A stretch of DNA of 64,000 nt. Origin: Zasmidium citrigriseum. Lineage: Eukaryota; Ascomycota; Dothideomycetes; Mycosphaerellales; Mycosphaerellaceae. The notes under the pieces are model-generated. The model had not been told where the DNA came from. It was given only the letters and a program-made list of their open reading frames with translations, and ran no database searches. Shown here in pieces: positions 1 to 30,760 of this stretch; within the stretch, counting starts at the first letter, position 1, and each line of letters begins with the position of its first letter. The position numbers and the translations under genes were made by a program. The stretch covers positions 558,001-622,000 of the forward strand of contig NHNW01000014.1 in assembly GCA_002786025.1 (NCBI GenBank), in the 5' to 3' direction.

Positions 1-537
1 TCGATATTAAAAGTAGCTAGTAGCCTAGATACTTCTTTAGGGAATAACCTCGCTACTACGCTAACGCTACTAACTACGTTAATAACTAGGCTACCTAAGG
101 GAGCCGAATTAAGTCTCGCCCGTTAATCTAGCGCTAAACTAGTACTCGTACTACCTACGATTTCTCGTAAAGTTCGATAATAGTTTAAAGCTATTCTAGA
201 AGATTAATTCGCTCTACGACGAAGCTAGCGTTTAATTAAGGCCGCCTCTCGACTAACGGATAATTAGCCTTCGCTTTTTATTACCGTCGTTTCCTCTACC
301 TTAAGTAGAAGCTAACGATAGAATCTCTAATAGCTTATATTACGAGGATATTCTATAGAATAAACCTATAGGTATCGACGCGCTTGTCGTATATATACTA
401 ATTACTCCTATTACCTTCTTACTTCTAACCTTAGCGTAATATTTATATAAATAGCCGTAGATAAGCCGCGAAGTAACCCGAGCCGCGCGACCGTTTACTA
501 TCTAATATACTTTCTTTTAGAATCGTTTCTTCTACTA

Positions 538-3066
538 ATATTTAAACCTAGTACTACTATCGTCGTAATACCTCTATAACGTAAACCTAATAATAGCGGC
601 GCTCTAGCGACTACTACCTCGAAGCGTAAGAAAACGACCTCTAACTTACTCGTACTCTTAAAGCGCGTAAAGGCTAATACGACTACTAATAATACGGTCG
701 TTAACCCCGCTTTAGCCGCTTAGGCGGCGGTATTATAGGCTAAGTCTAAGGGGATATTAGCGAAGTAGAGCGAGTCGAAGAGAGATAAGATAGCCGAGTA
801 GATCGCCGCTTAGAAGATAAAGGAAGACCCCGAAGGCTAGATAGCGAATAATAATAAGGCGATTACGTAAGCCTAGGAGCTCGGCGAGATACGTAAAGGT
901 ATAGACCTAGCGATAGTACTCTTCCCTAAGTCCTTCGATATCGAGGTCCGCCTAACGGAAGAGTATAAGTTAGTATTCGCTAATAACCTTAACTAGATTA
1001 GCTCTAAGTAGATAGAGTAAGCTAGTATCGCTAGGCTAAGCTACTATACTAATCTTCGTAACGTATCCGCTTAATAGCTAAATAATCTTATAGAGAGAGA
1101 GTATTTACTCTATAATATAGTCGCGTAGGAGGCTAAACCTAAGAAACTTAAGGTAATCTATAGCGTCTCGTAGAACCCTACGAAGCTTAATAAACTCGGT
1201 AGCGATACTCCTTACTATAAGTTTAGTAAGATACCCTTTAACCTACTCTTAAGCTAGTAGATTATACTTCGCGAGCGCTATTACTAGCTCGTTAAGTACC
1301 GCGATTACTATTAAAACGAGGATTAAGGCTAGTTAGAGTACGTAAAGTTAGAGCTCTAGAACTTTATATAGAGAGTTTAAGGTATAGTTAGTATTCGTAA
1401 CTATTAGGAGATATTTAAGGAGAGTTCTAACGCTATAGCTAAGGTAGTAGCGAAAGTACTAGAGGCCTATATTCTATTCTCTAAGCTACTAATTACGAAG
1501 AAGTCTTTCGATAGCGTTAAGAATCGATACGGAGGCGAAGCCTATTAACCGAAACTACTTAAGAATTAGTACTTCTATAAGCTAATAGGCGAGAAGTAGC
1601 TAATACCTTAGTAGTATAATAATAGTAAGCGTACCGCGTTAAGCGCCTACTACGAGAACCTTTATCGAGCTTAGCGCGGAGATAATAAGGCGCTACCGCT
1701 AATTATATAGGTTAACAGTACGACTATAGTAGATTATACGAATAAGAAGTTTACTACTAGCGACTCCTAGATAAGGGACCTTCTATAAGATAATATCGCG
1801 TCGTTCGCTAGCTTATCTAGAATACGTAGTATAATAGGTACTAAGGTCTAATTACGCTAGTACTCGATTTATAAGACTAACTTAGCGAGGGATACCTTAG
1901 AGTATTCGCTTATACTCTATCTATTCGAATACCTACTAGACGAGGGTAGTCTTATTTAGTAATTCCTTAGCGAGGAGTTCTTCGACGACGCCTTCTAGCT
2001 ATTCGTAAATACGGCTACTTAGAATATATTATAGGTCTAGCTTACGTAGTAGAAAGGCTAGCCTAAAGTATAGGATATAATCCGCTATATCCGAGATTAG
2101 GCTCTATATATACCTTAGACTTAGATCGATACTAGTTATAAAGATATTAGTCTCCTCGACTAGAAATCCTAGGCTAGTACGATCTTCTATCTCCTACTCT
2201 ATATAGCTTAGATTAGACTATAGTAAAACGACGATAGTTTAGTATTACTATAGTTTACTAATAGCTTTACCTAGGTTATAGTAAAGTTAGTAAAGTACCC
2301 TTAGTCCTAGTAGCTACCGATTATCGACGCGCTTTATATATTATACCCCGCTAGCGTATATATATTAGCCCTAGGCGATATCCCTAGCGAGTACTATAGG
2401 CTTAAGAAAGAGGTACTAGTAACTCTAGAACTAGAAGCCCTAAGGGTAACTCTACTACTAAGCTTAAAAGTAGTCCCCTCTACTATAAAGCCGACCGCGT
2501 TAAAGGCTAAGGGTAAATAAAAAGTAGATACTCCTACGATTAAATCTAGCGATAACGGATCGACGCTAGAATAGGCCTCTAGAAGCGACGAGGAGGCGGA
2601 CCTAGCTCTTAATAAGAAGCTTTCTAAGGTTATAAAGAAGGAAGCTTAAAAGGATTATAACCTAGTCCTTACCTAACTCGAGGCTAAATACTTCTAGCTA
2701 TAGGAATATATAAAAGTCCTAACTATATAGTATTCTTATATAACCTTCCGCTAGGAGTCGTAGATTATAGAAGCGGAGCGTCTAGTCGAGTAGTTAAGAA
2801 TCTACTACTTAGAGTATAAGTTTAGTATAAAAGGTTAGCCTAAGACGTTTAACGCTACCGTTACTAAGCTCCGTAAGATTACGCTAAAGTTATAGGAACC
2901 GCTACTATATAATACTCGATTTACCTTCGAGGCCTAAGGCGATTATAGTACTAGCGATAATAATAAAGGTAGACGAGCTCCTAAAGATTCTATAGTACCG
3001 TATCTTAGAAAAGGAGTATAGAGAGTAGGTTAATCGCCTCCTACGAGCCTAGATTCCCTAGTCCTC
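538..3066 (+). pseudogene. Unidentified long RIP-degraded reading frame A
   Basis: Frame beginning at an ATA (538, probably a mutated ATG) stays coding-like for about 840 codons. Its stops are TAG or TAA, as expected from RIP of CAG, CAA or TGG, and they are much rarer than in the other two plus-strand frames. The first 40 residues are Thr/Asn rich with a basic patch (SKRKK near codon 31), followed by a Lys/Glu-rich region. I do not recognise a transposase, reverse transcriptase or gag motif. It is presumably the first gene of an older mobile element because RIP acts on repeats. The exact ends are uncertain. Confidence 0.45.
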
Positions 3067-4220
3067 TAAGATAATACTTTAGTACTAGGTTACTCTAGTA
3101 TTTAGCGCTTACGCCTTTCTATTACTTAAAGGCGACTCTAATATAGCGTATTTCGTACGCGAACTTAAAGTACGGAATAAGAAGGTTAAGGCTAATACTT
3201 ACGAGACGAATACTAATCTCGCTCGTTATATTCGCGATAAAGTTAGCCTAAATAATTATATCTATAAGTTTCTAGCGTACCGAGACTACTACGATCTAGC
3301 CCTTATCTATCTAGAAGGAGCGCTTACTAACGATAGCGCGTTAATAGCCCCGAGCTACTTCGACTTCTCCTTATATCGCTCTAAGCTACTTCCTATAGAG
3401 AATCTCGATTATACTAAGAAGATTACGAAGATTCGAGGTTAGTAGATAGAAGTAGCGGTAGCTAACCTAGCGATTATTAAGAATATAGGTAAAGAGGAAG
3501 CTTAAGCTATCTTAAGAGTTTATATACCTATCCTCGATTACCTATAGGAGAGGAACTTCTAACGTAATCTTACGGCTACGCGCTTATTACTTAATAATAT
3601 CTTAAATAAGGCTAGATACGTAGATAAGACTTACGACTATAAGGTTAAGGGAATAGTACTAATATAGTTCTAGCGCTAAAGATATCCCGAGATTACGCTA
3701 ATCGAGCTCGAATCTTAGAAGCTCGATACTACCTAGCTCTCTAACCTAACTACGTCGATAGCCGCCCTATTATCTATAGGTTAGACTCTATAAGTCCCTT
3801 TCGTTATAGCGATATCTTACGAGGATTACTCTACGGAGGATATAAAGGACAAAGTAGAGCTATAGTTCTAATTTAGCTAGCCTAATAACTAGGAAGATAA
3901 GATATCTCGTACCTAGAAGATTTAACTTATTAATGCCGTTAACTACTATCGAGTAGACTTTAAAGCTAGCCCTACGATAATCTAGCGCGTTACGGACTTA
4001 CTTAACTATATACGCCTAATATACTAGTAATAGTACTTTAATAAGAATATAAAGGAGGTAGTAGGCTAGCTATTTTCTACGGACTAGGTACTAAAGAACT
4101 TAACTACGACGACTAACTAGATTAAGCGGAACTTCTAATAGTATCTCGTACTAGACCGTAACGAGGCCTTCGTATAATTAGACTAGCCTATATAGGCGCG
4201 TCGATAGCTAGGCTAAGTTC
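2942..4220 (+). pseudogene. Unidentified RIP-degraded reading frame B (overlaps frame A)
   Basis: Around 2942-3066 the coding-like frame changes by +1 relative to frame A, then continues for about 420 codons to near 4220. Frame B starts with a run resembling a coiled-coil segment (VDELLKIL near 2966-2990) and contains Tyr-rich stretches. Tyr is inflated because RIP turns His and Cys codons into Tyr. The overlap with a +1 offset could be a programmed frameshift, two overlapping genes, an intron or simply an indel. No family is recognised. It ends just before a G-rich run at 4355-4366. Confidence 0.4.
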
Positions 4221-4379
4221 TTTAGCGATTAAGGGATAGTAAGGATAGTAAGCGGGTTAGAAGGAGATTTTCTTTTATACCTATAGTATAGTAGATATTT
4301 TTACTTATAATAGTCTAGCTAGAGAGTACTCGAGGCTAAGTACTTTACGAAAGGAGGGGGGGGGGATTTTACTACGGAA

Positions 4380-4590
4380 GTAGTAGCGTAAGCCTATATA
4401 GCCTTCTAGCTAGCTAGCCTAGATAGGATATATAATTATATTACTATATTACGAGAGAGCGCTTCCGTACTAGTAGTAAGTAGGTAGGTAAGAACTTAAC
4501 TAGTATACTATAGGGTTAATAGATCTCTCGAAGCTTAATATAGTTATACGTAGAGTAGTTATCTATTATAATAACGGACTATAGGCCTAG
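4380..4590 (-). mobile_element. Tc1/mariner-like transposase, 3' part (split by Gypsy insertion)
   Basis: On the minus strand the segment just left of the Gypsy element encodes a DNxST-like motif around 4550-4563 whose Asp codon (4561-4563) matches the second catalytic Asp of Tc1/mariner DDE transposases (the DN[AC]S.H motif). The Cys and His codons after it have become Tyr codons by RIP. When the Gypsy element and one CCTAG target copy are mentally removed, the frame joins that of 12152-12960 without a shift, giving about 85 codons between the two catalytic Asp residues, as usual for the family. Downstream of this motif the sequence is too degraded to follow. The left boundary is a guess. 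Confidence 0.7.
4586..4590. repeat. Target site duplication CCTAG (left copy)
   Basis: CCTAG directly precedes the left LTR and is repeated directly after the right LTR at 12147-12151. Five-base duplications are typical of Gypsy integrases. Confidence 0.85.
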
Positions 4591-4821
4591 TATTAGGCTT
4601 TACCTAGATACGTAGGCTAGGTTACGTAACGAAAGCGAATAGCTATAGAAACGATAGTAGGTAAAGGTATCCCTTAGATACGACTTAGACTAATAACTAA
4701 GGAAGGAAGAGTATCTAAAGTATAGTATAAAAAGTACTATAGGCGCTAAGCTAGCGCTCTATAGGCTTATTACCTAAGGTATCCCTTAGACTAACTTTAT
4801 TAGAGTAAAGCTATCCTTATA
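4591..4821 (-). repeat. 3' LTR of Gypsy element
   Basis: 231 bp beginning TATTAGG and ending CTTATA; undoing RIP at the ends would give the usual TG...CA termini. It differs from the right LTR only at two dinucleotides (TA at 4675-4676 and 4771-4772, where the other copy has CG). Confidence 0.93.
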
Positions 4822-4839
4822 ATTGCCTCCTTCTCCCTA
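4822..4839 (-). other. Polypurine tract
   Basis: Directly inside the left LTR, the minus strand reads AGGGAGAAGGAGGCAAT, a purine run that would prime plus-strand cDNA synthesis. Its place beside this LTR independently shows that the element is oriented on the minus strand. It keeps one of the few surviving TG dinucleotides in the tract. Confidence 0.8.
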
Positions 4840-5297
4840 GACGATAACTCTATCGTTATATAGATATCCCTAGCGCCGTCTATCCGCCGCTAATAACCTA
4901 CGAACCTACGCGAGGATCGAATACGGAGTTAGGTAAGGATTTATCTATTTACTTAGATATAAAATCTAGTATTAGATATAGCGGTTTCGCGGTAGTAAGC
5001 TAGTAAAGCTCGTAGACCCTTTATAGAATATAAATAAATCTTACCTACTTTCCCTTTACTACCTATAAAGATAGTAAAGCGCGTAATAAGCTAGCGTCTA
5101 TATATAGGCTATAAGAGTATAAGAGAACTTCTACTAGCTAGAAGAATCTTCTTCCTTTAAGCTCTCGATAACCGCTCGCCCTCTACGCCTCGCTATCTTC
5201 TCTCCTCGCTCCGCTCTTCTCCTCTTCTACTCGCTAGCTTTAAGCCTTACTATATAATACTATTAATATCGCTAGCTTTACGCCTATTAATATTATT

Positions 5298-6359
5298 ATA
5301 TCTAACGAGACTCCTAAAGGCCCTAGCCTTAATAGTACTACTATTACGCTATTAGCCCTCTAGAATAACGCTATTAATACGACTACCTCCTCTACTTCTA
5401 CCTTACCTAGCCTTACCTAGCCTATTATACTTAGTACCTAGCCTAGTCGCTCCTCTCCTATCGATAAGCTAGCGACTCCTAAGCTTATCTCCTCTCGCGC
5501 CCCTAGAGTTATAGCGGCCTTTATTAAGAATTAGGCTAACGAACTATATCCTAACTACTATAATACTTACGCGCTCGATAGCTTTACGAAGAAAGGCTAC
5601 CTAGCTATCCCTAATAAGAAACCCGAGCTAGACGCTACTAACTACGCTAGCTTATTAAAGGCGAGAATCTATAGCCTCGCTAAGAACGCTATCGAGTAGA
5701 ATATTACCGCGTACTTCTCCTACCTTACCTACTAGATCTAGTTCGCCTACTAAGCGTACCGCGATAGTTACGCTAACTTTACTACGCTAACGTATATTAA
5801 GAAGAAGCCTAGCTATATTAAGTACTTCCTCTACTCGCTTACTAATAAGGCGTATAAGCTAGTATATTCCTCTATTATTCCCCTAGCTTTACGCTCGCTA
5901 ACCTTCTTCTAGTTCTATCCTAACGAGTATACGACTTAGCTCGTCCGCGCTTTAGTTAGTACGCGTAAAGACTTCGAGTTAGTAGCGTTCCCTACGGATA
6001 GTAACGTTAATAAAGAGGAGGCTAAAGAGTTAGCTAAGTAGATATTTATAGTACGTAATAAGTTCTAGGGGTATATATATAAGGATAGCGAGAGTTAGAG
6101 TACTTAGGCTACGCTTAAGAAGAAGGGAAGCTAGGGTAGCGCTATCTTTATACTAGTAGCTAGTAGCGGTAGTTTATTAGTTCGTATCGAGGATACGATT
6201 AAGTAGTAGGGTAGGGAGATTATTCGCGCCTTAAACGCGCTAAAGGTCGAGATAATAAATATTAATTAGGTAGTTATAGCCGTAGAGACGGCGATTCGCG
6301 AGGGTTCCGCTAAGGGTAGTTAGAAGAGCGATTCTAACGAGGAGATAGCTAAGGGTTAA
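5298..6359 (+). pseudogene. Extra antisense reading frame inside the Gypsy element, unknown product
   Basis: Between the pol chromodomain (minus strand) and the 3' LTR, the plus strand holds a frame of about 353 codons from ATA 5298 (likely a former ATG) to TAA 6357-6359. I count about 19 internal stops, all TAG or TAA and so explicable by RIP, whereas the neighbouring frame shows a stop every few codons. The inferred product starts with a Ser/Thr/Pro/Asn-rich stretch of about 70 residues, followed by a Lys/Tyr-rich, probably helical region and an acidic/basic tail. I recognise no domain. It could be an accessory gene of the retroelement or a captured host gene. The true end is uncertain because any terminal codon may itself be a RIP product. 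Confidence 0.5.
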
Positions 6360-6539
6360 GATAATAATTAGTTCTTAGGCGTTCTTCTATATCTAGGCTT
6401 TAGCTCTCTATATTAGTAATAGTATTACGCTAGCTTTATACGTAGCTATTTTTTAGGTAGTCCTAAGTCTTTACTATTTTTAGTCTTACTATCTTTCCTT
6501 TTCTTTAAAGTATTAAGAGTTAGGTTTTTCTTAAGGAAG

Positions 6540-9500
6540 GTTTCTAGCGCCTCGCTAGTATTACGTAGGTTTTCCGCTAGCTCCTAGGTATTTTCCTTAT
6601 AGCTATAGCCCTTCTATTTAATAAGCTAATAAGCCTTTCCTTTCTTCTAGCCTTTTTTAAGTATCTCTTCGACTTAATATTCCTCGGCGCCGTTAATCTC
6701 CTCTAGTAGCGGCTATACGCTATCGCCTTTATAATATAGTTCGAGTAGCGATATATAGAATATAGGGTAGATAGCTCGTAGGCTTATTAGTAGCTTTAAG
6801 CGGTATACTTAAAGGCTAACTTATTCTAATACTTCGAAAGGTCTAACGAATTTAGCGCTAAACTTCTTCTTTAGCCGTAAGGAGCGGAGATTTCGTAAGC
6901 TTAATATTACCTTATTGCTAGCTTTAAACGAGTAGGGTTTATACTTCTTATTATAGTACTTCGCTTAGTACTCGCTAGCGTAAACTAGGTTTTCTCGTAG
7001 CTCCTCTTAGACCTTTACTAGCTATTTAGCTTATTCCTTAACTATAGGGGGTAGAGGTTTATCTCTCTCTTCTATAGTAACGTTCTCGTTACTAGGCGCT
7101 CGTATATACTTCGTATATATAGCGTAAAACGGGGTTAACTTTAGCGAAGCGTACTAGGCGTTATTTTACGCGAACTTAGCCTATATAAGCTAATAGGCCT
7201 AGTTGTCTTAGTAGTAGTTAATAAAGTACTATAGATAGGTTTCTAGCGTTTAATTCGTTCGTTTAGTCTAACCGTTAGTCTATAGGTAGAAGGCGGTAGA
7301 AAGCTAGTATTTTACCTTCTATCTCTATAGTAGTAAAGACTAAAAGGAACTAGTAAATAGGCTACCTCGATCGGAAACGATTAATACTAGTAACCTAAAC
7401 CGCGTAATTAACTCCTTCTTAATAACGTTAGTAAGCTCGGTAGCCGTAATAGTAGAATCTACTAGTACGAAGATAGATAGCTTAGAAAGCCTATTAATAA
7501 TAATAAGGATTATATTAACGACTCCTCTCTAGCTTTACGCTAGTAGTAAGCCGACGATAAAGTCTATACTCTAGTAAGATAGTATCTTATTAGGCTCGGG
7601 TATTTATAATAAGCTTAACTCGCTATATAGCTTATATATCTTATACTTATTACGCTAGTAGACGTCGTAACGCTCGATATATATCTAGATATCTTTAGTA
7701 AGGTCTCGCTAGTAGTACTTACGGTATAAAGCCTTCTCTAACTTAGCTTCTCTAAAGTAACCTACGCTTAGATTATTATAGTTACGTTCTATAATTTTAG
7801 CCTTTAGAGCTAGATCCTTAGGGACGAATACGAGGCTATTAGTAAGAAGTACGCTATCGCGGCTTAGGCTCTACGCTAGCGATACGCTAGCTAACTCTAT
7901 CTACTCTTCCCTAGCGTTAAGCTATCTTAACTTCTTAAGAGCGAAGGCGTCCCTCCGTTAGGCCTCTTTAATTAGCGTTAATAACGTTAACGGTATATCT
8001 AAGTAATAGCTTTCTCCCTTTACGTACTCTATTACTCTCCTTCTCGAAGTATACCTAGCGTAACTAACGCGGGTTAATAGCGCCTTCCCGTCTCTTCGAG
8101 TTAGTATAGTAGATTTTAATCCCTTAGTACTAGAAGCTTTTATACTCCTATAGGCGTTACTTCGTAACCCTAGCGTATTACCGTTATAACGCTAATCGCC
8201 TAGAATTAGGAGTACTATAGTAGAGCCTAACCTAGTCTCTTCCTATAAGGCTATAATCGAGCCTAATAACCGTCTATCGTTTATCGTTTACTCCTCTAGC
8301 GGCTCGCCGTCTATCTAAGCTACCTCCTAGCGGACTAAGAGGTACTCGTTTATTCTAGAGGTATACGCCTATCGATTAGAAAACTTTAGCTACTAAGTAA
8401 GAGTTTTATACTCGTTAAGCGCTTAGACCTCCTATAGTCTTTCCTTACTACTAGTAGTACGTAAAGGAGAATCTAGAGACTACGCTTAACTCTAGGTAAT
8501 CGCTAAGTTTACGTCGACGTCTCGTTCGAGAGTTTTATACTCGTTAAACGCTTAGACTACTTATAGCTCTTCCTTACTACTAGCGGTACGTAAAAAAGAA
8601 TCTAGAGACTAGGCTTAACCCTAGGTAATCGCTAGGTTTATATTAGCGTCCTATTCTTTATAGATTATACTTTATAAGATTAGTAATATTATTATAGTCG
8701 CTTCTACGCGGTCCTCTAGCTTATAGTTAGAGCGTTACGAGAGTCTATCTATAGGGTTCTTTTTCCCTTAGCGATAGATAATTTAGATATCGTACTACGC
8801 TAGCTCTTCGCTATATCTAGCCTAGTAAGAAGATAGCGTCTTCGTAGTACGGAAGTACTTAAGGTTATCGTAATCCGTAATTATCGGAATAACGTCCTTA
8901 TAAGATAAGACGTATTAACGCTAGTATCTTACGCTCTCGACGATAGCGAGTAGCTCTTAATTATAGGTATAATACCTTAACTCGGCTCCCTTTATCTTAC
9001 GGGAGTAGTATATAATTAGATACTAGTACTTATCGTTTAGCTAGCGTTTATCCGTTAATACGAGCTATACTAGAATACCTAAGATAGCGAAGGTAGAGGT
9101 ATCTATCTCGATCCTTATATCCGTATTCTTTAAGAAATAAGCGAGGATAGGCGCTATTATAAAGCGGGTTTTTAGCGCCTAAAACGCCTCGAGAGCTTCT
9201 TTACTTATAGGGAAGTAAGTCGCTCTACTTCGAAGAAAGGAGGTCTATTATAGGGCCTACTACCCGCGTATAGCCCTCGATAAACTAGTAGTAGAAGTTC
9301 GTAAAGCCTAGGAATACCTATAATTCCTAAAAGTTTATTAGAGTAGGCTATTTAAGGATACTCGTAATACGCTTAGGTTCTATTAAGATTCTCTCTAGCG
9401 TTATAACGTATCCTAGGAAGTCGATCTTCTAAACCTCGAAAGTATATTTCGAAGGTTTAGTATATAGGCTATATTTATAGAGCCTAGCTAGGACCTCCCT

Positions 9501-11880
9501 AACGTATCGCTAGTATTCCTCTAGTATTAAGCTATAGATAAGAATATTATTAAGGTAGATAATATAAAAGTTATCTACTAATCTAGTAAGGTACTAGTTT
9601 ATATACGCCTAAAAGGTAGCTAGCGCGTTAGCTAAGCTAAAGGGTATAATAACGTACTTAAAGTAGCTATATCGATAGCGGAAAGCTATCTTCTACTTAT
9701 TGCCTAGGCGGATTTAAATACGATAATAAGTATTACGAAGGTTAATCTTCGTAAAGTACTTAGTACCCTATAACCTATTAAGTAGTTTAGAAATTAAGGG
9801 GAGAGAGTACCTATTTTTAGTAGTAATCGCGTTTAAACCGTAGTAGTCGACGTAGAGTCGTAGGCTACTATCCTTCTTAGGGACGAAAAGGATAGGGGCT
9901 CCTACTAGGCTAGTAGAAAGCTAGAGTCTCCCTAGCTTTACGTTCTCGAGTATATAGGCTTAAAGAACCTTAAGCTATTCTAAGCTTAAGGGGTAAATTA
10001 GTCTATACGATAGCGACTTATCGTCTTATACCTCGATAGTATAATTATAAGGTATACTATCTAGTATAAAGGTAGCCTTCTTATAGTTAAAGACGTCCGC
10101 GTAGTCCTTAGCCTAAGCGGGGACTAGTCGTATATCTAGTAGTCCGTTATTATTATCTATATTACGCTAGTCTAGGACGATAGTATATATATATAGTTCG
10201 CCTTTAATCTCGATAGCGAAATCCTTAGGGTCTATAATAACCGCTTTCTACTCGCCGTTAGGGAACTAGAAGGTCGCGTTCCTCTAGTTAATAATAGGGT
10301 TATATTAGAATAACTATAGGCGGCCTAGAAGGATAGAAGGCTTATCTATCTTAATAGCTTCGAAACGCTAGCGGCTATCTAGCTTCTAGTTAGTACTATT
10401 AGAGGTTCTAATATTAAGGCGGTATATACCTAGGGATCGATATTCCTAGTTAAAAATAGTCCGCGCTCTTACGATCGAGTACCTATTAATATAAAGGTAG
10501 TATAATAGTACTAACTTCTATAATATAAAGTTATAGTCGGCTCCCGAATCTATAAGTCTAGAAGCCTTAATAGAAGGAGTAGCGTCGTCTTAACCGAGCT
10601 CGACGTTAGCGTAAACGTAGCGTAAAACTAGCGGCTTATTAGCTTCCTCCTTCGATTCTCCTAGTCCTAGGTATATAGAGGTAGTAGTAACTAGGACTAG
10701 TCTTTTTTCGGTTAGTAGTAGTCTTTAGCCTAGTAGCCTAGTTTACTATAGTTAAAGTAGGTATTATCCTAATTCTAGTTCCTAATAGGTATATAGTTCG
10801 CGTTCGAAGCGCTAGCTCCTCGCTAGGGTCTATTATTTATACGTAGGGTAAACTACGGGCGATTATTACCTTAGTAGCGAGGAGGTTTATTCCCTAAGCC
10901 GCTCGCGTTACCCCTAGGGTTTAGTTTCTTATCCTTATCTTTATCCTTATCTTATAAAGGTTAGTAGAGTATTCCTTTAAGACGAGAGAGGAGTAGAAGG
11001 AGTTCTATCCTCTTAAGTAGAAGAGATCCCTAGCGAAGGAGTTCTATTCGTAAAGCCTAGGTAATACTAGCGATAAGTAGGTATAACCGCTATTTCTCTA
11101 TAAACGGTTCTATATTAACTTCTCGTTCTAGATTCTCTAGGTAAGTAGTAAAGTTAGCGACTCGCTAGCTAATACCTTACTTATACGTAAAGAGCTAGAC
11201 CGCGAAATCTATCGATCGATTAATAGGGTCCTTAACTTAGTCTATAAGCTAGATATATAGGATAGACTAGTATTATCGCTCTCGTCCCTCTATCGATACG
11301 AAGAAGTCCTAATTAGTAGCTACTCGTCCCTTAAGATACGAGATAGTATAGGCGTATCGCTCCCGTAAGAAGTAGTAGATATAAGGTTATATAGCGAAGA
11401 CTATATTATATAATCTAATAAACTCTTTCGTAGCGGTAATATTACCCCTACTAAAATCCTTTAGTACGCTAGGGCGTAGGTTCCTCTTAAGCGTAATAAG
11501 TTATATCCTCGTCTCTATAGGAAGAACCTATCGTATATCCTTATCTTCGCTATCTTTAAGAGGGTCGTAGGTAGTTAGGATTAGTAGAGTATAGCCTATT
11601 ATATTAGCCTACTAGCTTAAAGACTACGGTTCGTCGTCGCTATTAGATAGCGCTCGTAGGCGTTTAGTACCTATAGCTACTTAGCCCTAGGTAAGTATAG
11701 TTTCGATAATAGCCTAGATATCGTTAGTAGTAAGTAGTAGTACTAGCGGTAGTTTATCTTAGGGTTAGTTAAGCTCTAGCTATTCTTCGATATCTTAGAG
11801 TTACTTATCTAGGTTAGAGCTAGGGTTTAAAGTAGGCGTATTACTACCTCTCTACTATCTTATAGCTATCGTTACGCTAT
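6540..11880 (-). pseudogene. Degraded gag-pol of the Gypsy element
   Basis: Minus-strand remains of gag and pol. Visible landmarks: a CCHC knuckle with its Cys codons turned into Tyr (10,717-10,765); the protease active-site DSGA still intact (10,530-10,560); the reverse transcriptase box where the expected YLDD is now YLNN (9546-9557), because each GAT preceded by T lost its G; the integrase CxxC turned into YxxY (7658-7669); and a chromodomain with EEI.., LIK.KGY and ENT.E signatures (about 6540-6690). Stops are TAG/TAA in place of Gln and Trp. A 129-bp in-frame tandem duplication lies at 8401-8658. gag must occupy about 10,700-11,880; I did not fix its start. Confidence 0.88.
8401..8658 (-). 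repeat. 129-bp tandem duplication within pol
   Basis: Two adjacent copies starting at 8401 and 8530, each beginning GAGTTTTATACTCGTTAA, with a period of 129 bp (43 codons, so the frame is kept). Copies differ at several sites, partly outside the RIP context, so the duplication predates the last RIP. Confidence 0.75.
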
Positions 11881-11886
11881 ATAGCT

Positions 11887-11915
11887 AGATTCGAACGGAT
11901 ATAGAGTTATTAGAA
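11887..11915 (-). other. Possible primer binding site
   Basis: Just inside the 5' LTR, the plus strand shows ATTCGAACGGATA, which resembles a tRNA T-loop and T-stem (TTCGAAC), followed by about 11 bases that could be an acceptor stem and a mutated CCA. A tRNA-primed element would carry the tRNA-like sense strand here, since its own strand is minus. The 3-base gap to the LTR and the RIP damage make this tentative. Confidence 0.35.
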
Positions 11916-12146
11916 TATTAGGCTTTACCTAGATACGTAGGCTAGGTTACGTAACGAAAGCGAATAGCTATAGAAACGATAGTAGGTAAAGGTATCCCTC
12001 GGATACGACTTAGACTAATAACTAAGGAAGGAAGAGTATCTAAAGTATAGTATAAAAAGTACTATAGGCGCTAAGCTAGCGCTCTATAGGCTTATCGCCT
12101 AAGGTATCCCTTAGACTAACTTTATTAGAGTAAAGCTATCCTTATA
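11916..12146 (-). repeat. 5' LTR of Gypsy element
   Basis: 231 bp, same length and ends as the left LTR. Retains CG at 12000-12001 and 12096-12097 where the 3' LTR has TA. Confidence 0.93.
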
Positions 12147-12151
12147 CCTAG
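12147..12151. repeat. Target site duplication CCTAG (right copy)
   Basis: Matches 4586-4590 on the far side of the Gypsy element. Confidence 0.85.
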
Positions 12152-12975
12152 ATATAGCGATATATATAGTAAGATATACTACTAGATCTATATAAGAAAC
12201 TCTAGCCTATAGACGGTACCCTTCTTAATTCTTATATAAGGAAGCTAGCTATTAATTATATATACTAGAAGGATAGTATATATAATAGAGGCGTACCTAT
12301 AAAGTATTATTATCGCTAGACTACCCTTTAGTACCTATCTATAGCGTTAGACGGCCGTCTTCTTACTATAATAGGACTCGTCTACGTATATTAATTAGTC
12401 CCTCTTATAGCTAGCTATATAGACTAGGTAGGAAGTAATAGTAGTATCGTCTCGTTAACTAGCTCTATATTATATTACCTTCTAAGTATAGTCTACGTCC
12501 TTCCGAGCGTTATTAATAGTCGTTACTATAACCTATACTAAGAACTCTATTACTATTAGATCCTAAAGCTCTTCTACCTATAAACTATTATTCTTTATCT
12601 ATTATTTAATTATAAAGTCTCTAATCGCTAGAGTAATCTTTTTTAGCCGCCTAGGCTTACCTTTAGGCCTATAGATAGTACTATACTATCTAAAGGTTAT
12701 AACGAGTCGCTTAATAGAATATTTACTACTAGAGGGATATATCTATATCTATATATTACTACTAGAGAGGCCTTATTATAAGAGGACTTCGATATACGCC
12801 TTATCTATATTATCGAAGGGCGCTATAGCTAGAGAGTAGCTATAGAAGGTAGTAATAGACTACTAGAGGATAGGCTATTAATATATTAATTAATTAAGTA
12901 AATATTCGAGTAATAGGGCGATAGGGTAGGGATTAAGAGAGATTAAAGTTATAGCTATAGTATAAATTAAGGTAG
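12152..12975 (-). mobile_element. Tc1/mariner-like transposase, 5' part (split by Gypsy insertion)
   Basis: Minus-strand frame with RIP stops only. It shows the order expected of fungal Tc1/mariner transposases: an N-terminal helix-turn-helix-like region with a STIYR-like run, a PRRLKKIT linker around 12,640-12,660, then YVDES at about 12,374-12,388 whose Asp codon (12380-12382) corresponds to the first catalytic Asp, and an RIKKGT segment typical of the following strand. The coding frame resumes at 4590 on the other side of the Gypsy element. Right boundary and terminal inverted repeats could not be fixed; RIP stops at about 13,015. Confidence 0.72.
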
Positions 12976-13015
12976 TAGGTATAGTCTTAGCGCTCTACGA
13001 AACTCCGCTAGGGTT

Positions 13016-13517
13016 TTGCTTTCTAAGAATAAGGAGTTAATTAAAATGCTAACTAAGCCTAATAAAGTACGACATTTCGTTTGCTTACTACTAACAATTC
13101 GGATCGAATGCAGCTACGAAAACGAAACTAATTCCCTAATAGTCGTCAAGAAGGCCTGTACGGTCTCGTTCGTTGACATATCGGAAGGCACGTTCAACGA
13201 TCATGAACAATGGACCAGGATAGATTGTGCAGGCAAAGTCTCACAGGACCCCTGACCAGGCGAACTTAGAATAGTTAATGTAGACAGCCTTTCGAGACAG
13301 AAGGATGATCGAAGGGACCAAATCACACGACCTTGGATATCCATCATAGGAGAAGAAATAACGCCCAACTCTCAAAGCATTGCGGATGAAGAATCTCCGC
13401 TACATACAAGTCGTTGCGACACATTTTGCAAGCCTGGTATGGCCAGCGATGCTTGGGAGAGGCTCGAGTTTGCGAGCGGCAATCGTAGGCTCGGGATACG
13501 CCATGCATTTTGGGAAT
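13016..13517. other. Boundary between RIP tract and euchromatin
   Basis: Normal CA/TG use resumes here over about 100 bp. A 79-codon plus-strand ORF (13016-13255) runs out of the RIP tract and looks like chance. No gene is supported. Confidence 0.6.
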
Positions 13518-14781
13518 CTATCGAAGGAGGAGGTCGACCCTTCGGCCTTTCATGCAGCCTTTCCATTCTTGATAGCGAGAGCCACCCTGAGCTTCGAACC
13601 AACAAGGCCAGTCTTGCTCCCAAGCCTTGAATGTGCCTTGGTTGACTTTCGCGATGCCGTGCCATGCGTGCGCGCTCTCGCCGGTGAAGAGCAATGCGTC
13701 ACCGTGTTTGAGGCGGAGAGCGGCAAGCTGATGGCCAGGGGCGTCGAAAGTTGGCGGTGGAGGGTTTGCTTGCCGCTGTTGTTCTTGCTCGGTGTAATAG
13801 TCATCGTCCAGGCCAACAATGTGCTCGCGCCAGCTGTCTTCGGCTTCGTCAATGTTTGGAGAGGACGGTTTGGCCTCCTTAACCTCGACTGGTGTCATCT
13901 GCCTTCCAACGATGAAGATCCCCTCGCAGCCGAGTGAGACATGAATAAAGGATCCTTGATTTACTTGTTCCTGTCGCAGGCTCATCTTGTCCTTGGGGGA
14001 GGAGATGTAGGCAGAGGCGGAGCTCAGCTGTAACGGAAAGATCCCCTCGATGAGACGCTTAATGTTTGTTGGCAGGCCTAATGTGATCCACTGCAGCTTC
14101 TCTACAAACGTTCGAACAGATATCGGAAAGTTGACCCAGGACTCTTTCAGGCGAGGTTGGAACCTCAAATGAGAGGCCTTTGGATCGAAGAACGAAGTTG
14201 GCGCCCCTTTAAGGGCGGACGTCTCGGGATAGGTGACATGATACTCATCATGCAGGTTGGTTGTATTGGAGGGAATGGATAGCTCGCGGTGTAGCAGTTG
14301 ATCCAACAGTTTCTTCCCAACTAGATAGTTGCTCAGTATTTCTGGATAAACGTAAAGTCCTGACGTCTTCGTAAGCCTGGATCACCGAGTGAGCTTTGCT
14401 GTGCTAACCAGGAAAACCTTCGACTTCGTACACAGCGCTGGCTTGTATGGAGTGTGGATGTCTGGTCGATACATTGCAGTGGTTGAAAGAACACTCTCCA
14501 ACAAAGTCGAACCAAGCCAGCTGTACATCGATGTACTGGTCGTGGTGCAACGCCATTGATTTCGGCCAACAATGCTTGAGTCTTGGGTTCGAGACTGGCG
14601 TATTCTGGCTCCTCCGAGGAACATCTATTACTGATGGACATAGCCTTAGCGAGTTGCTATCGAGTTCCCCGATCCAATTATAGAATTCTTGAATGGCAAT
14701 TGGAGGTTCCGATGTCATAGTACGTATTTTCCTGGCGGTAGTTTGGCGTTCGTGGTTCTCGAAAGTTTGAGAATGGTCCAA
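13518..14781 (-). pseudogene. ALKBH1-like 2-oxoglutarate/Fe(II) dioxygenase pseudogene
   Basis: The downstream 262-codon frame (14306-13518) resembles fungal AlkB homologue 1 proteins, which oxidatively demethylate nucleic acids. It has LLHRELS and TNLHDEY near the N-terminal region, VSLGCEGIFIVG, the HGDALLFTGES strand, a WHGI that would supply the second iron His, and a C-terminal RRVDLLLR like the 2-oxoglutarate-binding Arg strand. The usual HxD iron motif is gone: at that place the sequence is SLRQEQ, and the loop is about two residues short. Upstream family-like sequence is scattered over two frames (IDVPR in one, EYASLEPKTQALLAEING in another, then VYEVEGFPG back in the first). The only plausible intron (donor at about 14,407, acceptor at about 14,370) does not restore the frame. 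I therefore call it a decayed gene beside the RIP island; a sequencing error remains possible. Confidence 0.6.
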
Positions 14782-16664: not shown

Positions 16665-19632
16665 ATGGCGCCCTCTTTCACCACCCGTCCACGTTCTGGA
16701 GACTCGTCTGCTCGCCCCGTCAGCCGCGACGACGACAACCTGGTCATTCCCAATCGCACCTCGTCGTTGCACTCGCGCATCACCCAGCCCGTGCCAGGCG
16801 CCATGCCGCAACCAAAGACCGGCAACCGTGCTCCCAAGACATTGACCCACGCCTACATGGTGTGCGGTGTGGGACGAGAACCATCGCAATGGGTGAAAGC
16901 ACCGCCACCAGCGCAAGGAAAGATTGGGCACATGAAGGGTGCCGTTGGACAGTTTTGGCTGCCAGAAATTCTGGGGAGCAGCCCTCGGCTGGAGCAGGAC
17001 AATGAGATTGCCAGATCGCTCCATTCGGCAATGAGGGTACATTCAATTTTGAGCACAATTATTGGTTCACGATAGACTGACATTTCTTAGGCTTGTTTCC
17101 CTCACGATGTCGAAATCTGCACCGGCACCACCCAACCCCATTGCGTCCACCACGCATTCGTTTTACAACAAGATTCTTCCCACACACTATACGGCATCGC
17201 CCTGCGTGTATGGTCACGGGCCGATGAGAAACGCGCCGAGACGATTCGCGACCTTCGCAGGCGCACCGAGGCGGACTATTACGACCAGCCAGGCGAGACC
17301 TACTGGATTCCATACTGTCTGTCATTCTTGTCGAGATACCCACTATACAACTTGCTTGGAGACTACCTGCGCGGTATGTGGATCCACTGGAACAAGGCTA
17401 CCAATCTCTTCCACGCTGAAGAAGTATCCCGAATCTTGAGCTTTCCAGCTCCACGCTTGAACGACTTGGTGCGAATCGACATGAAGGATTACGCTCTGTG
17501 CTACCAATTCCCACCTTCACCCAATGGATTCCAAAACTTCGCCATGTGGCCACTGTTCAGCTGTCTGTCGATTCCCAACATCATTGGTGTGTTGGAAGCA
17601 GCAGTCTCGCCAACCCGACGCATCATCTTCATCTCTCACTACCCGGCTATGCTGACTGTCGCCACTGAGACCGTTCGCTTCATGGTTCGAGTGTACGAAT
17701 GGAGCGGTCTCTACGTTCCAGTCGTGCATGCGCGCCATGTCAAGGAATTGGTTCAGGAGCCTGGCCCATATATTCTGGGTGTTACTGCTGAATGCCGAAC
17801 GCTCTTTACCGCTCCCCAAGATGCGCTTGTCGTCGACCTTGATCGCAACTTCGTCTTGACATCCAGCCCACCCAGCGCATGGAGCGCGAAACAGCGACAA
17901 AAGCTCATCTCGCGAATGACCCAGGCCTTGAACGGCGATGTGGCACCCACTGGAGTACCGCAGCATCTTCGTTCGGCTTACGGGGGTGGCAAGCTCATCC
18001 CAGCTGGGCAGATCATTGTAATGCGCGGAGAAGTTGAGAGTGTGCAAGATCCTGGTTGGTGGAATCAAGATGAAATCATGAAGGTCATGGATCATGCATG
18101 CGAGAAACTCGTGAGTGGTAATCGAAGTTCTATTATCTCGCAAAGGCTAACTTCAGGGACAGGGCAAGAATACTGGTGTCAAGGCCATGTTCGGTGGTTC
18201 GCAAAAGAAGCCTCTGATGACCAAGGTATCCATGCGACACTTGAACGAGATTGTTCGCGAGCGGAACCAGTACTCCCGAGACGCAATGGAGGCATGGCAA
18301 GATTTCATCAATCTCAAGGGACGCATGGACACCGAGCTCACCAAAGTCACCAAGCGCAATAACTTCTTGGTCGAGGAATTGGAGAGCTGGAAACAACAGT
18401 TCCTCAAGTTCCAAGCCTTTGCTGAGCAACTCACCAAGGAGACGAATGAGCTCAAGATCAAGATTGAAGGGCACAAGCGCGAGAATCGCCGCCTCACATC
18501 GCTCATCGATCAGCAAAAGGACGACACTGCAAGACTTACGGTCCGTTTATCCGGCACTGAGAAGCAGAGAGACGATGCGTTGGAGGCGCTTGTGCTTCAG
18601 CAAGAGATTGCCGAGGAGCTCGAGCGTGAACGCAAGAGGAATAAGAAGGACCTCTCAGCATTGCAACACACCAACGCCACCCTTCTGCGACAACGTGACG
18701 AAGCTCAACGAGTTGTCCTCCACCTGCGCGCTCTCATCGACGGTCAAGCCCACCACATGGAGCACATCGTCAAATCCCTTGGCGACAACCCTGGAGGTGC
18801 TGAGTTCTTGGACGCGGAAGAAGAGCTTGAGGATGGCGAGACCGAGAACAAGGACACCAAGGACCACCCTGAGGTTGGCACGCTTCGAGGAGTGTTTGGA
18901 TTGGGCTCAAGAACGTCATCACGGGCAAGCACGCGACAGTCATATCGCATGGATGGTGAGGATGTCTCCTCTGCAATGGAGTCTCGCCTCCAGCAGACTT
19001 CGGCTGCTCGCAAACGTCTTTCAGAACTCAGTATGACTGACGTGGCAGACCGACATCTTCGCGACAAGACGGACGCCATCGCCTACATCATCCGCAACAT
19101 CTCCGAGCAGTGCGCCGCCGCCGTCGAAGGTCTCGATCTCGCACGCCGTGCCGATACCTCGAGCGCTGCCAGCGAGGGTGGCGATGACGAGGAAAGGACT
19201 GAGTCGAGGAAGAAGCGTGGAAAGAGGCCAGTCAAGAACCTTACACCTGACTCTGCGGAGGGCGACCAAGATCAGCAGAGCAATGCGGGCTCTGAATCGG
19301 AGTTTGGCGACGGCAGGACAGGGAGCACAACCGGATCATACCTGCACCCTAAGAGGTCATCTGTTGTCCCACCAACTCCTGATCTTGTCCACGATCGAAG
19401 CTCGACGAGCATGAGTGTCGGCAGCGAGAGCACGGCCGCCACGCCACAACGACACAGCCTACAGAGTCAGTACAGCAAGACTCATGACGACATTCCAGAG
19501 GTGCCGACGCATATTGTCGATCACGAGCACGGTCACACTCTCGAAGAGGTTGTTGAAGTGCCAGAGGAGCCCGTCACCAAGTTCAGCACCAATGGCCTTG
19601 AACACCGACACGAACAATCCCAGCAGGCATGA
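16665..19632 (+). CDS. DENN (AEX-3) domain protein with C-terminal coiled coil
   Basis: Three exons: 16665-17036, 17091-18110 and 18157-19632, giving 955 residues. Introns are 54 and 46 bp, GT-AG, and both joins keep the frame. The first 55 residues are polar and probably disordered. The tripartite DENN module (upstream, central and downstream parts) spans roughly residues 60-460; highly conserved runs include RYPLYNLLGDYLRGMWIHWN, the IPNIIGVLEA strand and a DLDRNFVLTSSPP segment. Residues about 475-650 form a strong coiled coil, and the tail is acidic, Ser rich and disordered. DENN proteins generally act as Rab guanine nucleotide exchange factors in membrane traffic; the specific Rab cannot be read from sequence. 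Start chosen as the first ATG giving a family-like N-terminus. Confidence 0.9.
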
Positions 19633-29692: not shown

Positions 29693-30760
29693 TCATCCTC
29701 TGTTCAGAGTATTGCCACTCCCCTTCGGATTTGCCTCGACATACTCATCCCACTCTCTGGCCTTCATCGTCTCTCTGTCCGCAGCTTCCATATCATCCTC
29801 ATCCACTTGTGGCTTGACTTCACTCTGCGGTCCACCACCTTCGATCATGCCTCCCCGTCGCCGCTCCTCTTCGAGATACTCGTCGATGCTCATGGTGGGT
29901 AGGCTGTGATCCGGTCTGAACACGCCATCACGGAACTCTTCCCTCTTGCTCGTTAGAGTAAAAGGACGTAGTGGCTTTCCACTGTTATCCAGTAGAGGCC
30001 CACGCATGCCAGCAGAGAGATGCCGTGAGTCTAGTCTCTCGCTGTATCCATCTGCATGTCTGCCGTTTCGTTCTCTTGCGTCGTTGGGCTGCTGTCGTTG
30101 GTCTGGAGGCGGCGATGGAGGCGCCAGAGACAAAATGTGCAACTCCTGACCTATGGATTCGAGGGAGGCGAAGGTCTGATGCGTACAGTACGCAATGTTC
30201 GTCAACTGGAGCTTTCGATATGCCTCGTCGTCGTTCTGTACAATCTGTGGATTCTGTCGCAGGTATTCAAGTTGCTGCTTCAGTGCCTTCTCTTCTTTGA
30301 ATCGTCTGATCTTTGCATCTCTTCGTGCTGCTGGGTCTCTCGTCGATGCGGTTGAGAACGTATTTGGTGACTCTTGATACTGCTCAAAGAGCTTCGCATC
30401 ATCCTTCGATAGCAGATCGTAGTTGTCCAACTGCTTCAGATATCGCTCGTAGCTCTGCTGTGCTCGTTGCAGGTTTGCTTTGCGCTGCTCTTGCCCGTTG
30501 ATTCGTAATACTAACTCGGCGACTCGGTAGTTGAGGAGAAGGTATTGGAGGTCAGCTGTTCCTATGTCTTCGAGGGACTCGTTCGGGCTGAATAAAGATA
30601 TCTGCCCGGCGATTTCGAGGCATTCTTCGTACAGCTGGATCGCCAGCAGAAGGTTGTCTTGGAAGCTGGCCGAGTTGCTGTCGTAGCTGTTCTCTATCGT
30701 GCCTCGCTTTTGTTCGGCTTCTGAATAAACAGAGCGAAGGCTTCGGTGTTCATCTGACAT
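29693..30760 (-). CDS. TAP42: Tap42/alpha4-like PP2A-binding protein
   Basis: Intronless, 355 residues from ATG 30758-30760 (MSDEHRSLRS); an in-frame upstream ATG at 30844 would add 28 polar residues and is less family-like. Tap42/alpha4 binds the catalytic subunits of PP2A-type phosphatases downstream of TORC1. The N-terminal two thirds is all helical and TPR-like (LYEECLEIAGQISLFSPNE, YLLLNYRVAELVLR). The C-terminal third contains the conserved PLRPFTLTSKREEFRDGVFRP strand, SIDEYLEEERRRG and the acidic tail with REWDEYVEANPKGSGNT. Divergent from DCL1 with a 331-bp shared promoter. Confidence 0.93.
   Translation of the reverse strand: MSDEHRSLRSVYSEAEQKRGTIENSYDSNSASFQDNLLLAIQLYEECLEIAGQISLFSPNESLEDIGTADLQYLLLNYRVAELVLRINGQEQRKANLQRAQQSYERYLKQLDNYDLLSKDDAKLFEQYQESPNTFSTASTRDPAARRDAKIRRFKEEKALKQQLEYLRQNPQIVQNDDEAYRKLQLTNIAYCTHQTFASLESIGQELHILSLAPPSPPPDQRQQPNDARERNGRHADGYSERLDSRHLSAGMRGPLLDNSGKPLRPFTLTSKREEFRDGVFRPDHSLPTMSIDEYLEEERRRGGMIEGGGPQSEVKPQVDEDDMEAADRETMKAREWDEYVEANPKGSGNTLNRG

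What the first reader, a model, noticed from the sequence alone, without database searches (positions are those of the whole stretch)
5298..6359. Antisense extra gene inside a Gypsy chromovirus, next to its 3' LTR
A frame of about 353 codons runs opposite to gag-pol between the chromodomain and the polypurine tract. Stops in this frame are few and RIP-explicable, unlike the alternative frames. No known domain is visible. An accessory gene carried antisense by a retrotransposon could be a regulator or a captured host gene, and could be previously undescribed.
Basis: partly seen in the sequence, partly recalled or inferred. Interest (0 to 1): 0.75.

Follow-up and report, generated by a model that had tools for sequence, protein, structure and literature searches.

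The report
Antisense accessory gene in fungal retrotransposon
A heavily mutated jumping element in a fungal genome carries, back to front beside its usual genes, an extra protein gene of unknown family whose versions differ far more between copies than the neighbouring part of the element; one similar case is known from grey mould, so the arrangement is not new, but no relative of this gene was found.

Summary
The frame is real. A 7.56-kb Ty3/Gypsy chromovirus lies on the minus strand (4591-12146; 231-bp LTRs, TSD CCTAG), with a plus-strand gene at 5298-6371 between pol and the 3' LTR. All 15 long chromodomain/integrase matches found in this genome have it next door. In 14 of 14 uninterrupted copies its length is a multiple of three; it has the element's strongest three-base periodicity; a codon model trained on pol, right in 4 of 4 controls, picks this frame. 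One further copy has a 1-bp frameshift and a large insert. Transversions show no pol-like purifying selection. Instead the gene carries deeply diverged alleles on backbones with few transversions, with sharp edges: allele exchange, with relaxed or diversifying selection. No relatives were found in Pfam, a 5.8-billion-protein collection, or elsewhere in the genome. Antisense genes in this position are known (plant Grande, Retand, RIRE2; fungal brtn of Boty). Verdict: a real, unnamed accessory gene, a new member of a known kind; homology to brtn could not be tested; function is inferred only.

The parts
4586..4590 (.). Target-site duplication CCTAG, left
   Evidence: same 5 bp at 12147-12151
4591..4821 (-). 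3' LTR (231 bp) of the minus-strand element
   Evidence: pairs with 11916-12146, four mismatches, all of TA versus CG type
4826..4837 (-). Polypurine-tract-like sequence near the inner end of the 3' LTR
   Evidence: read directly; function inferred
4822..5297 (+). Leader between LTR and antisense gene; pyrimidine-rich stretch about 5161-5234; would hold an antisense promoter or 5' UTR (inferred)
   Evidence: sequence; GC skew -0.30 in 5001-6000
5298..6371 (+). Antisense accessory gene, about 357 codons; 19 in-frame TAG/TAA in this copy before 6357
5298..5540 (+). Variable S/T-rich N-terminal part of the gene with block-wise allele differences
6311..6368 (+). C-terminal block; two main haplotypes among 13 core copies (columns 6317-6357)
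6372..6424 (.). 53-bp gap between the two convergent genes
6425..6427 (-). Probable pol stop, a stop codon in 15 of 15 copies
   Evidence: a second shared stop lies four codons on
6527..6679 (-). Chromodomain
   Evidence: PF00385 E 1.2e-8
7325..7810 (-). Integrase: zinc-binding part 7643-7810 (E 1.4e-4) and core remnant 7325-7510 (E 0.025), both below Pfam's curated cut-offs
8792..9112 (-). RNase H-like domain
   Evidence: PF17917 E 1.9e-20
9402..9884 (-). Reverse transcriptase
   Evidence: PF00078 E 9.3e-18
11916..12146 (-). 5' LTR
12147..12151 (.). Target-site duplication CCTAG, right

Best explanation
It is a protein-coding accessory gene of a Ty3/Gypsy chromovirus, placed antisense and tail-to-tail with pol, between pol and the 3' LTR. 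Shown: gene, strand, frame, presence in every long copy found, allele-wise divergence with edges at the gene, RIP decay of all copies found. Inferred: it was transcribed from its own promoter in the 3' LTR or the 476-bp leader, and made a basic protein of about 357 residues with an S/T-rich, variable N-terminus; its fold is not resolved. By analogy with plant GENE23 and TRP28 proteins, and with the same placement as fungal brtn, I think it most likely acted in the nucleus or in particles to regulate the element's own cycle. Its diverged alleles moved between elements by recombination, probably template switching between co-packaged RNAs. How likely: coding antisense accessory gene about 0.9; recombining diverged alleles about 0.8; regulator of the element's cycle about 0.45.
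For: 15 of 15 long matches to the chromodomain/integrase end (of 19 matches; the other 4 are fragments of 64-103 bp) lie beside a copy of the gene. 14 of 14 uninterrupted copies have lengths 1071, 1074 or 1077. Periodicity and TA phase. Codon model trained on pol: the true frame ranks first in 4 of 4 leave-one-out control pieces, and the claimed frame ranks first of six for the gene (-3.758 per codon, next -3.789) and its middle (-3.713, next -3.775). Position-2 composition fits plus-strand coding (G 0.13 read plus, 0.26 read minus; pol 0.12-0.15). Transversions in 5541-6310 by codon position: 26/32/50 for the C62 copy against the window copy (p 0.013), 18/23/40 for C62 against C83. ATG is kept at 5298 in 4 of 14 copies. 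Allele edges, C62 against the window copy: 7-26 transversions per 100 bp in the eleven windows over the gene, 0-1 in the eight windows after it, 3 in the window before it. Mosaic haplotypes among 13 copies. Recombination between subfamilies by template switching has been proposed for the fungal chromodomain element crapaud (PMC10787394, passages).
Against: Transversion rate at codon positions 1+2 (92/694) equals that at fourfold sites (9/64), ratio 0.94, while pol in its own frame gives 0.16 on the same pair and 0.04-0.09 in the other comparisons: no strong purifying selection, and this ratio does not single out the frame (among 13 core copies the claimed frame has the highest ratio of six; for C83 against the window copy another frame is lower). 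No third-position excess for C83 against the window copy (16/14/17) or among the 13 core copies (17/18/13). Amino-acid identity between alleles is no higher in this frame than in the others (0.51 against 0.51-0.56). Replacement scores are highest in this frame (2.6-3.3 sd on transversion codons, next best 1.7-2.6), but the same test misses pol's true frame, so I give it little weight. One of 15 copies has a 1-bp insertion that shifts the frame; a second copy shares it with a compensating 1-bp deletion. The leader also varies among core copies (11 informative columns in 418 bp). No transcript evidence. The AlphaFold2 model is useless (mean pLDDT 31.5). The regulatory role rests on analogy only.
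Confidence: 0.6

Rival explanations
1. The antisense transcript, not the protein, matters: convergent transcription over pol makes double-stranded RNA that silences or limits the element, and the frame is drifting.
For: Tail-to-tail genes with about 53 bp between stops; replacement rate near the fourfold rate; PMC7264820 (passages) raises dsRNA regulation for antisense aORFs.
Against: Codon periodicity, frame kept in 14 of 14 uninterrupted copies and pol-like codon choice in this frame need past selection on a protein.
Confidence: 0.2
2. A captured host gene, or a gene of another mobile element, fixed in the family.
For: No Pfam domain found; capture is discussed as an origin of extra ORFs (PMC7264820, passages).
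Against: No match in the own genome at E 0.01 beyond 17 stretches, all in this family's copies. No protein match at E 0.001 or, for a 14-copy profile, at E 1, although the collection holds Dothideomycete proteins (1328 matches for a host control). RIP-changed residues lower the sensitivity.
Confidence: 0.12
3. Not a gene: a chance open frame in RIP-saturated DNA, or a frame shaped by another gene on the other strand.
For: Minus frame 0 has nearly as few stops (22 against 20); TA phase alone cannot tell the two strands apart; alleles show no strong purifying selection.
Against: Codon model with controls, position-2 composition and, in comparisons with C62, third-position transversions favour the plus frame.
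Confidence: 0.05

Closest known systems
brtn, antisense gene of Boty-like elements (Botrytis cinerea; Zhao et al. 2011 Virology, paper not held; seen as cited in PMC8365987, PMC7264820, PMC4227169)
   Same: Extra gene antisense to gag-pol, between pol and the 3' LTR, in a fungal element whose gag-pol includes a chromodomain (passages).
   Different: Host here is a Dothideomycete by its gene content, not Botrytis. Sequence relation untested: no brtn sequence was available.
Plant antisense aORFs: GENE23 of Grande, RIRE2, Retand TRP28, PvRetro13
   Same: Same place and orientation; present in most copies; function unknown, nuclear or DNA-binding role suggested for some (PMC7264820, PMC11963269, passages).
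   Different: Retand is a non-chromovirus lineage (PMC11963269 abstract). No Transposase_28 or other Pfam match here.
crapaud (Podospora anserina chromodomain LTR element)
   Same: Fungal, RIP-affected, subfamilies that recombine (PMC10787394, passages).
   Different: Its diverged variants are in the 5' half of the LTRs (abstract start); a figure legend shows two ORFs only.

Membership tests
Ty3/Gypsy chromovirus | LTRs with target-site duplication | tested here: met
Ty3/Gypsy chromovirus | Order RT, RNase H, integrase, chromodomain | tested here: met
   the integrase matches are below Pfam cut-offs
Ty3/Gypsy chromovirus | gag | tested here: inconclusive
   no Pfam match in 10931-11620
Antisense aORF between pol and 3' LTR (aORF-3R) | Open frame antisense to gag-pol between pol and 3' LTR | tested here: met
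   open apart from TAG/TAA in RIP-saturated DNA
Antisense aORF between pol and 3' LTR (aORF-3R) | Present in all or most copies of the family | tested here: met
   15 of 15 long chromodomain/integrase matches
Antisense aORF between pol and 3' LTR (aORF-3R) | Conservation similar to other element proteins | tested here: not met
   gene far more diverged than pol between alleles; PMC7264820 gives this as an observation, not as the definition
Antisense aORF between pol and 3' LTR (aORF-3R) | Antisense transcription | not testable with these tools
   no RNA data
brtn | Sequence homology to the Botrytis protein | not testable with these tools
   no brtn sequence available; no homolog in the protein search
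Transposase_28 (TRP28) antisense ORFs | PF04195 match | tested here: not met
   not among the Pfam matches up to E 1; RIP-changed residues lower the sensitivity

The most novel reading that the evidence does not exclude
The antisense gene is a multi-allelic, recombining specificity locus inside a retrotransposon: old alleles are kept and swapped between otherwise similar elements because the product recognises self versus other elements, or escapes a host restriction factor, and rare alleles win, much as envelope or compatibility genes do.
Probability: 0.15. Interest if true: 0.75.

Novelty: new member of a known kind. Interest (0 to 1): 0.42.

Why it matters
Antisense accessory genes of LTR elements are a recognised puzzle: repeatedly present, function unknown. 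This is a fungal case outside Botrytis and Sclerotinia, and it adds a testable feature: allele divergence confined to the gene, with sharp edges. If sister species show the same, the gene marks where selection acts in such elements. It also shows that codon phase, a codon model and transversion-only tests can find a gene in DNA where RIP has erased nearly every CA and TG.

Tried and rejected
Stop counting as proof of the frame: rejected, because every stop in RIP-saturated DNA is RIP-explicable and minus frame 0 does nearly as well. Replacement scores (BLOSUM62 against shuffled partners) as proof of the frame: highest in the claimed frame, but the same test on pol is highest in a wrong frame, so it was demoted when I checked this report; the codon model was added then. 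Pfam on one copy and on all 14: only sub-threshold matches (Mer2 E 0.11; SNAPC5 in 8 of 14, best 0.014). Protein collection: none at E 0.001 (3299 candidates), none at E 1 for the profile (the 7993 best candidates scored). Viral contigs: 7 pattern matches, none confirmed. AlphaFold2: mean pLDDT 31.5, so no fold search was made. First alignment with loci in mixed orientation: discarded and redone. One search failed on a missing file. In one search the windows beyond 7880 and, for the C62 copy, below 5130 were disregarded, because insertions and locus ends spoil them. The 88-column gap of C83 at its insertion site was left out of the indel count. The apparent LTR divergence of the C62 copy came from an insertion: its LTR lies about 10.8 kb further.

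Full report
The window's first 12.7 kb are RIP-saturated: in 1-12000, CA and TG make up 0.02% and 0.05% of dinucleotides, TA 18%. RIP changes CA to TA and TG to TA (PMC3017866, passages). The genome is 44.4 Mb in 148 contigs. A host gene in the window (TAP42-like, 29693-30760 minus) matches proteins named as from Lecanosticta, Hortaea, Dothistroma and Friedmanniomyces endolithicus at 77-83% identity, and unnamed ones at up to 91%, so I place the host in the Dothideomycetes; the species is not known to me.

The element lies on the minus strand. LTRs at 4591-4821 and 11916-12146 (231 bp, four mismatches, all TA against CG) are flanked by CCTAG on both sides. Pfam finds reverse transcriptase, RNase H, an integrase zinc domain (below cut-off) and a chromodomain in that order; no gag match. 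The sequence at 4826-4837, near the inner end of the 3' LTR, is polypurine on the element's strand. A DNA search finds 15 long matches to the chromodomain/integrase end, plus 4 fragments of 64-103 bp; all 15 have the antisense gene beside them. These searches score only the best candidates, so copy numbers are lower bounds. One of the 15 is split by a large insertion in the gene (C83, two matches).

The plus-strand frame starts at 5298, where 4 of 14 copies keep ATG, and ends at a TAG at 6369-6371 shared by 14 of 14. Lengths are 1071, 1074 or 1077 in 14 of 14. Pol's probable stop, shared by 15 of 15, is at 6425-6427, so the two genes converge with about 53 bp between them. Stop counts alone are a poor argument: 20, 26, 57 on the plus strand and 22, 29, 66 on the minus strand. 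Codon structure is a good one: TA dinucleotides are 42/39/103 by phase, and the base-by-phase chi-square per 400 bp is 40-46 in windows over the first half of the frame and about 21 over the second, against 1.6-4.8 in windows over LTRs and leader and 2.9-21.4 over the rest of the element; one window in the neighbouring repeat, 3801-4200, reaches 27.8.

TA phase is symmetrical between strands, so strand needs other evidence. A codon model trained on four pol pieces in their own frames ranks the true frame first of six in 4 of 4 leave-one-out controls, and ranks the claimed frame first for the gene (-3.758 per codon; next, minus frame 1, -3.789) and for its middle part 5541-6310 (-3.713; next -3.775); the leader shows no such plus frame 0. 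Position-2 composition agrees (G 0.13, as in pol 0.12-0.15; read on the minus strand it would be 0.26). Third-position transversions in 5541-6310 agree for C62 against the window copy (26/32/50, p 0.013) and against C83 (18/23/40), not for C83 against the window copy (16/14/17). Replacement scores are highest in the claimed frame (z 3.3, 3.2, 2.6 on codons with transversions; best other frame 1.7, 2.6, 2.4), but on pol the test is highest in a wrong frame (n 5-14 codons), so I do not lean on it (the version with all changes has the same fault).

Selection was measured with transversions only, because RIP makes transitions. Pol in its own frame gives a positions-1+2 to fourfold ratio of 0.16 for the C62 copy against the window copy, and 0.04-0.09 in the other comparisons. 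The antisense gene gives 0.94 for C62 against the window copy, 0.92 for C62 against all 13 core copies, 1.35 for C83 against the window copy, 0.96 for C62 against C83, and 5.0 over all pairs of 13 core copies, the last from few independent events. So there is no strong purifying selection. Among the 13 core copies transversion columns fall 17/18/13 by codon position, with no third-position excess. This counts against a strongly constrained protein and is why I speak of relaxed or diversifying selection.

The most telling result is where the divergence sits. Against the window copy, C62 has 7-26 transversions per 100 bp in the eleven windows from 5280 to 6380, 3 in 5180-5280, 0-1 in the eight windows from 6380 to 7180, and 0-4 in those to 7880. 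Third-position transversions are 69 of 347 codons in the gene against 13 of 460 in integrase/chromodomain (p 1e-15), and fourfold sites 9/64 against 2/143 (p 5e-4). Since silent sites in the gene are also old, faster protein change alone does not explain it; the gene carries an older allele on a younger backbone. C83 is closer to the window copy in the 5' part but shares its 3' block with C62 (0 transversions in 6280-6380, against 7 from the window copy). Among 13 core copies the informative purine/pyrimidine columns form linked blocks with conflicting groupings: 5301-5323, 5352-5354, 5382-5536 and 6317-6357; 195 of 703 column pairs are incompatible with one tree. Pol (38 of 120) and the leader (30 of 55) also show incompatibility, so recombination is general. 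The gene holds 38 informative columns in 1074 bp, pol 16 in 1508 bp, the leader 11 in 418 bp, so the leader is also variable among core copies. Template switching between co-packaged RNAs has been proposed for crapaud (PMC10787394, passages).

Indels in the gene: eight events by my count, six of them multiples of three (p 0.02 against one third), leaving out the gap at C83's insertion site. In the leader part 5130-5297 the indels are of 1 and 4 bp, and pol 6500-7900 has none. A 1-bp insertion near 5867 is shared by C62 and C83; in C62 a 1-bp deletion about 38 bp on restores the frame, in C83 none does.

No relatives were found: Pfam, the protein collection, viral contigs, or elsewhere in the own genome at E 0.01. 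The protein control shows that proteins of the host's clade are in the collection, but the query bears RIP-changed residues and placeholders, so sensitivity is reduced, and RIP-ruined element genes are probably seldom predicted as proteins elsewhere (my inference). The AlphaFold2 model (mean pLDDT 31.5) carries no information on the fold.

Literature: antisense ORFs between pol and the 3' LTR are an established kind. I recalled the Botrytis case and then found it cited. PMC7264820 (passages) lists Grande, RIRE2, Retand, PvRetro13 and, in fungi, Boty of B. cinerea and S. sclerotiorum. PMC8365987 (passages) and PMC4227169 (passages) cite brtn; I did not see the original paper. PMC11963269 (passages) describes TRP28 antisense ORFs and suggests DNA binding. 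My searches for a Dothideomycete case (listings; term look-ups in PMC3248453, PMC4112212, PMC3017866, PMC13041039) showed none, within that open-access library only.

Conclusion: a real antisense accessory gene, a new member of a known kind, with an unusual allele structure. Its role as regulator of the element's cycle is an inference by analogy; a specificity locus kept diverse by selection is the boldest reading that I cannot exclude.

Noticed in passing
window 1-4350: A second RIP-saturated repeat left of the element, with long plus-strand stretches open apart from TAG/TAA; no convincing Pfam match in six frames of 601-4202 (best DUF3209, E 0.0097, below cut-off).
   Followed up: partly
window 8400-8640: A 112-nt direct repeat (88% identity) inside pol, between RNase H and integrase.
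   Followed up: no
window about 9115-9400, minus strand: Reverse transcriptase and RNase H lie in different frames in this copy: an indel or a programmed shift.
   Followed up: no
window 12000-14000: Sharp change from RIP-saturated DNA (GC 33-41%) to gene-bearing DNA (GC about 48-61%).
   Followed up: no
L014 and contig C62: About 10.8 kb separates the leader (6021-6178) from the LTR (16950-17391) in this copy: a nested insertion.
   Followed up: partly
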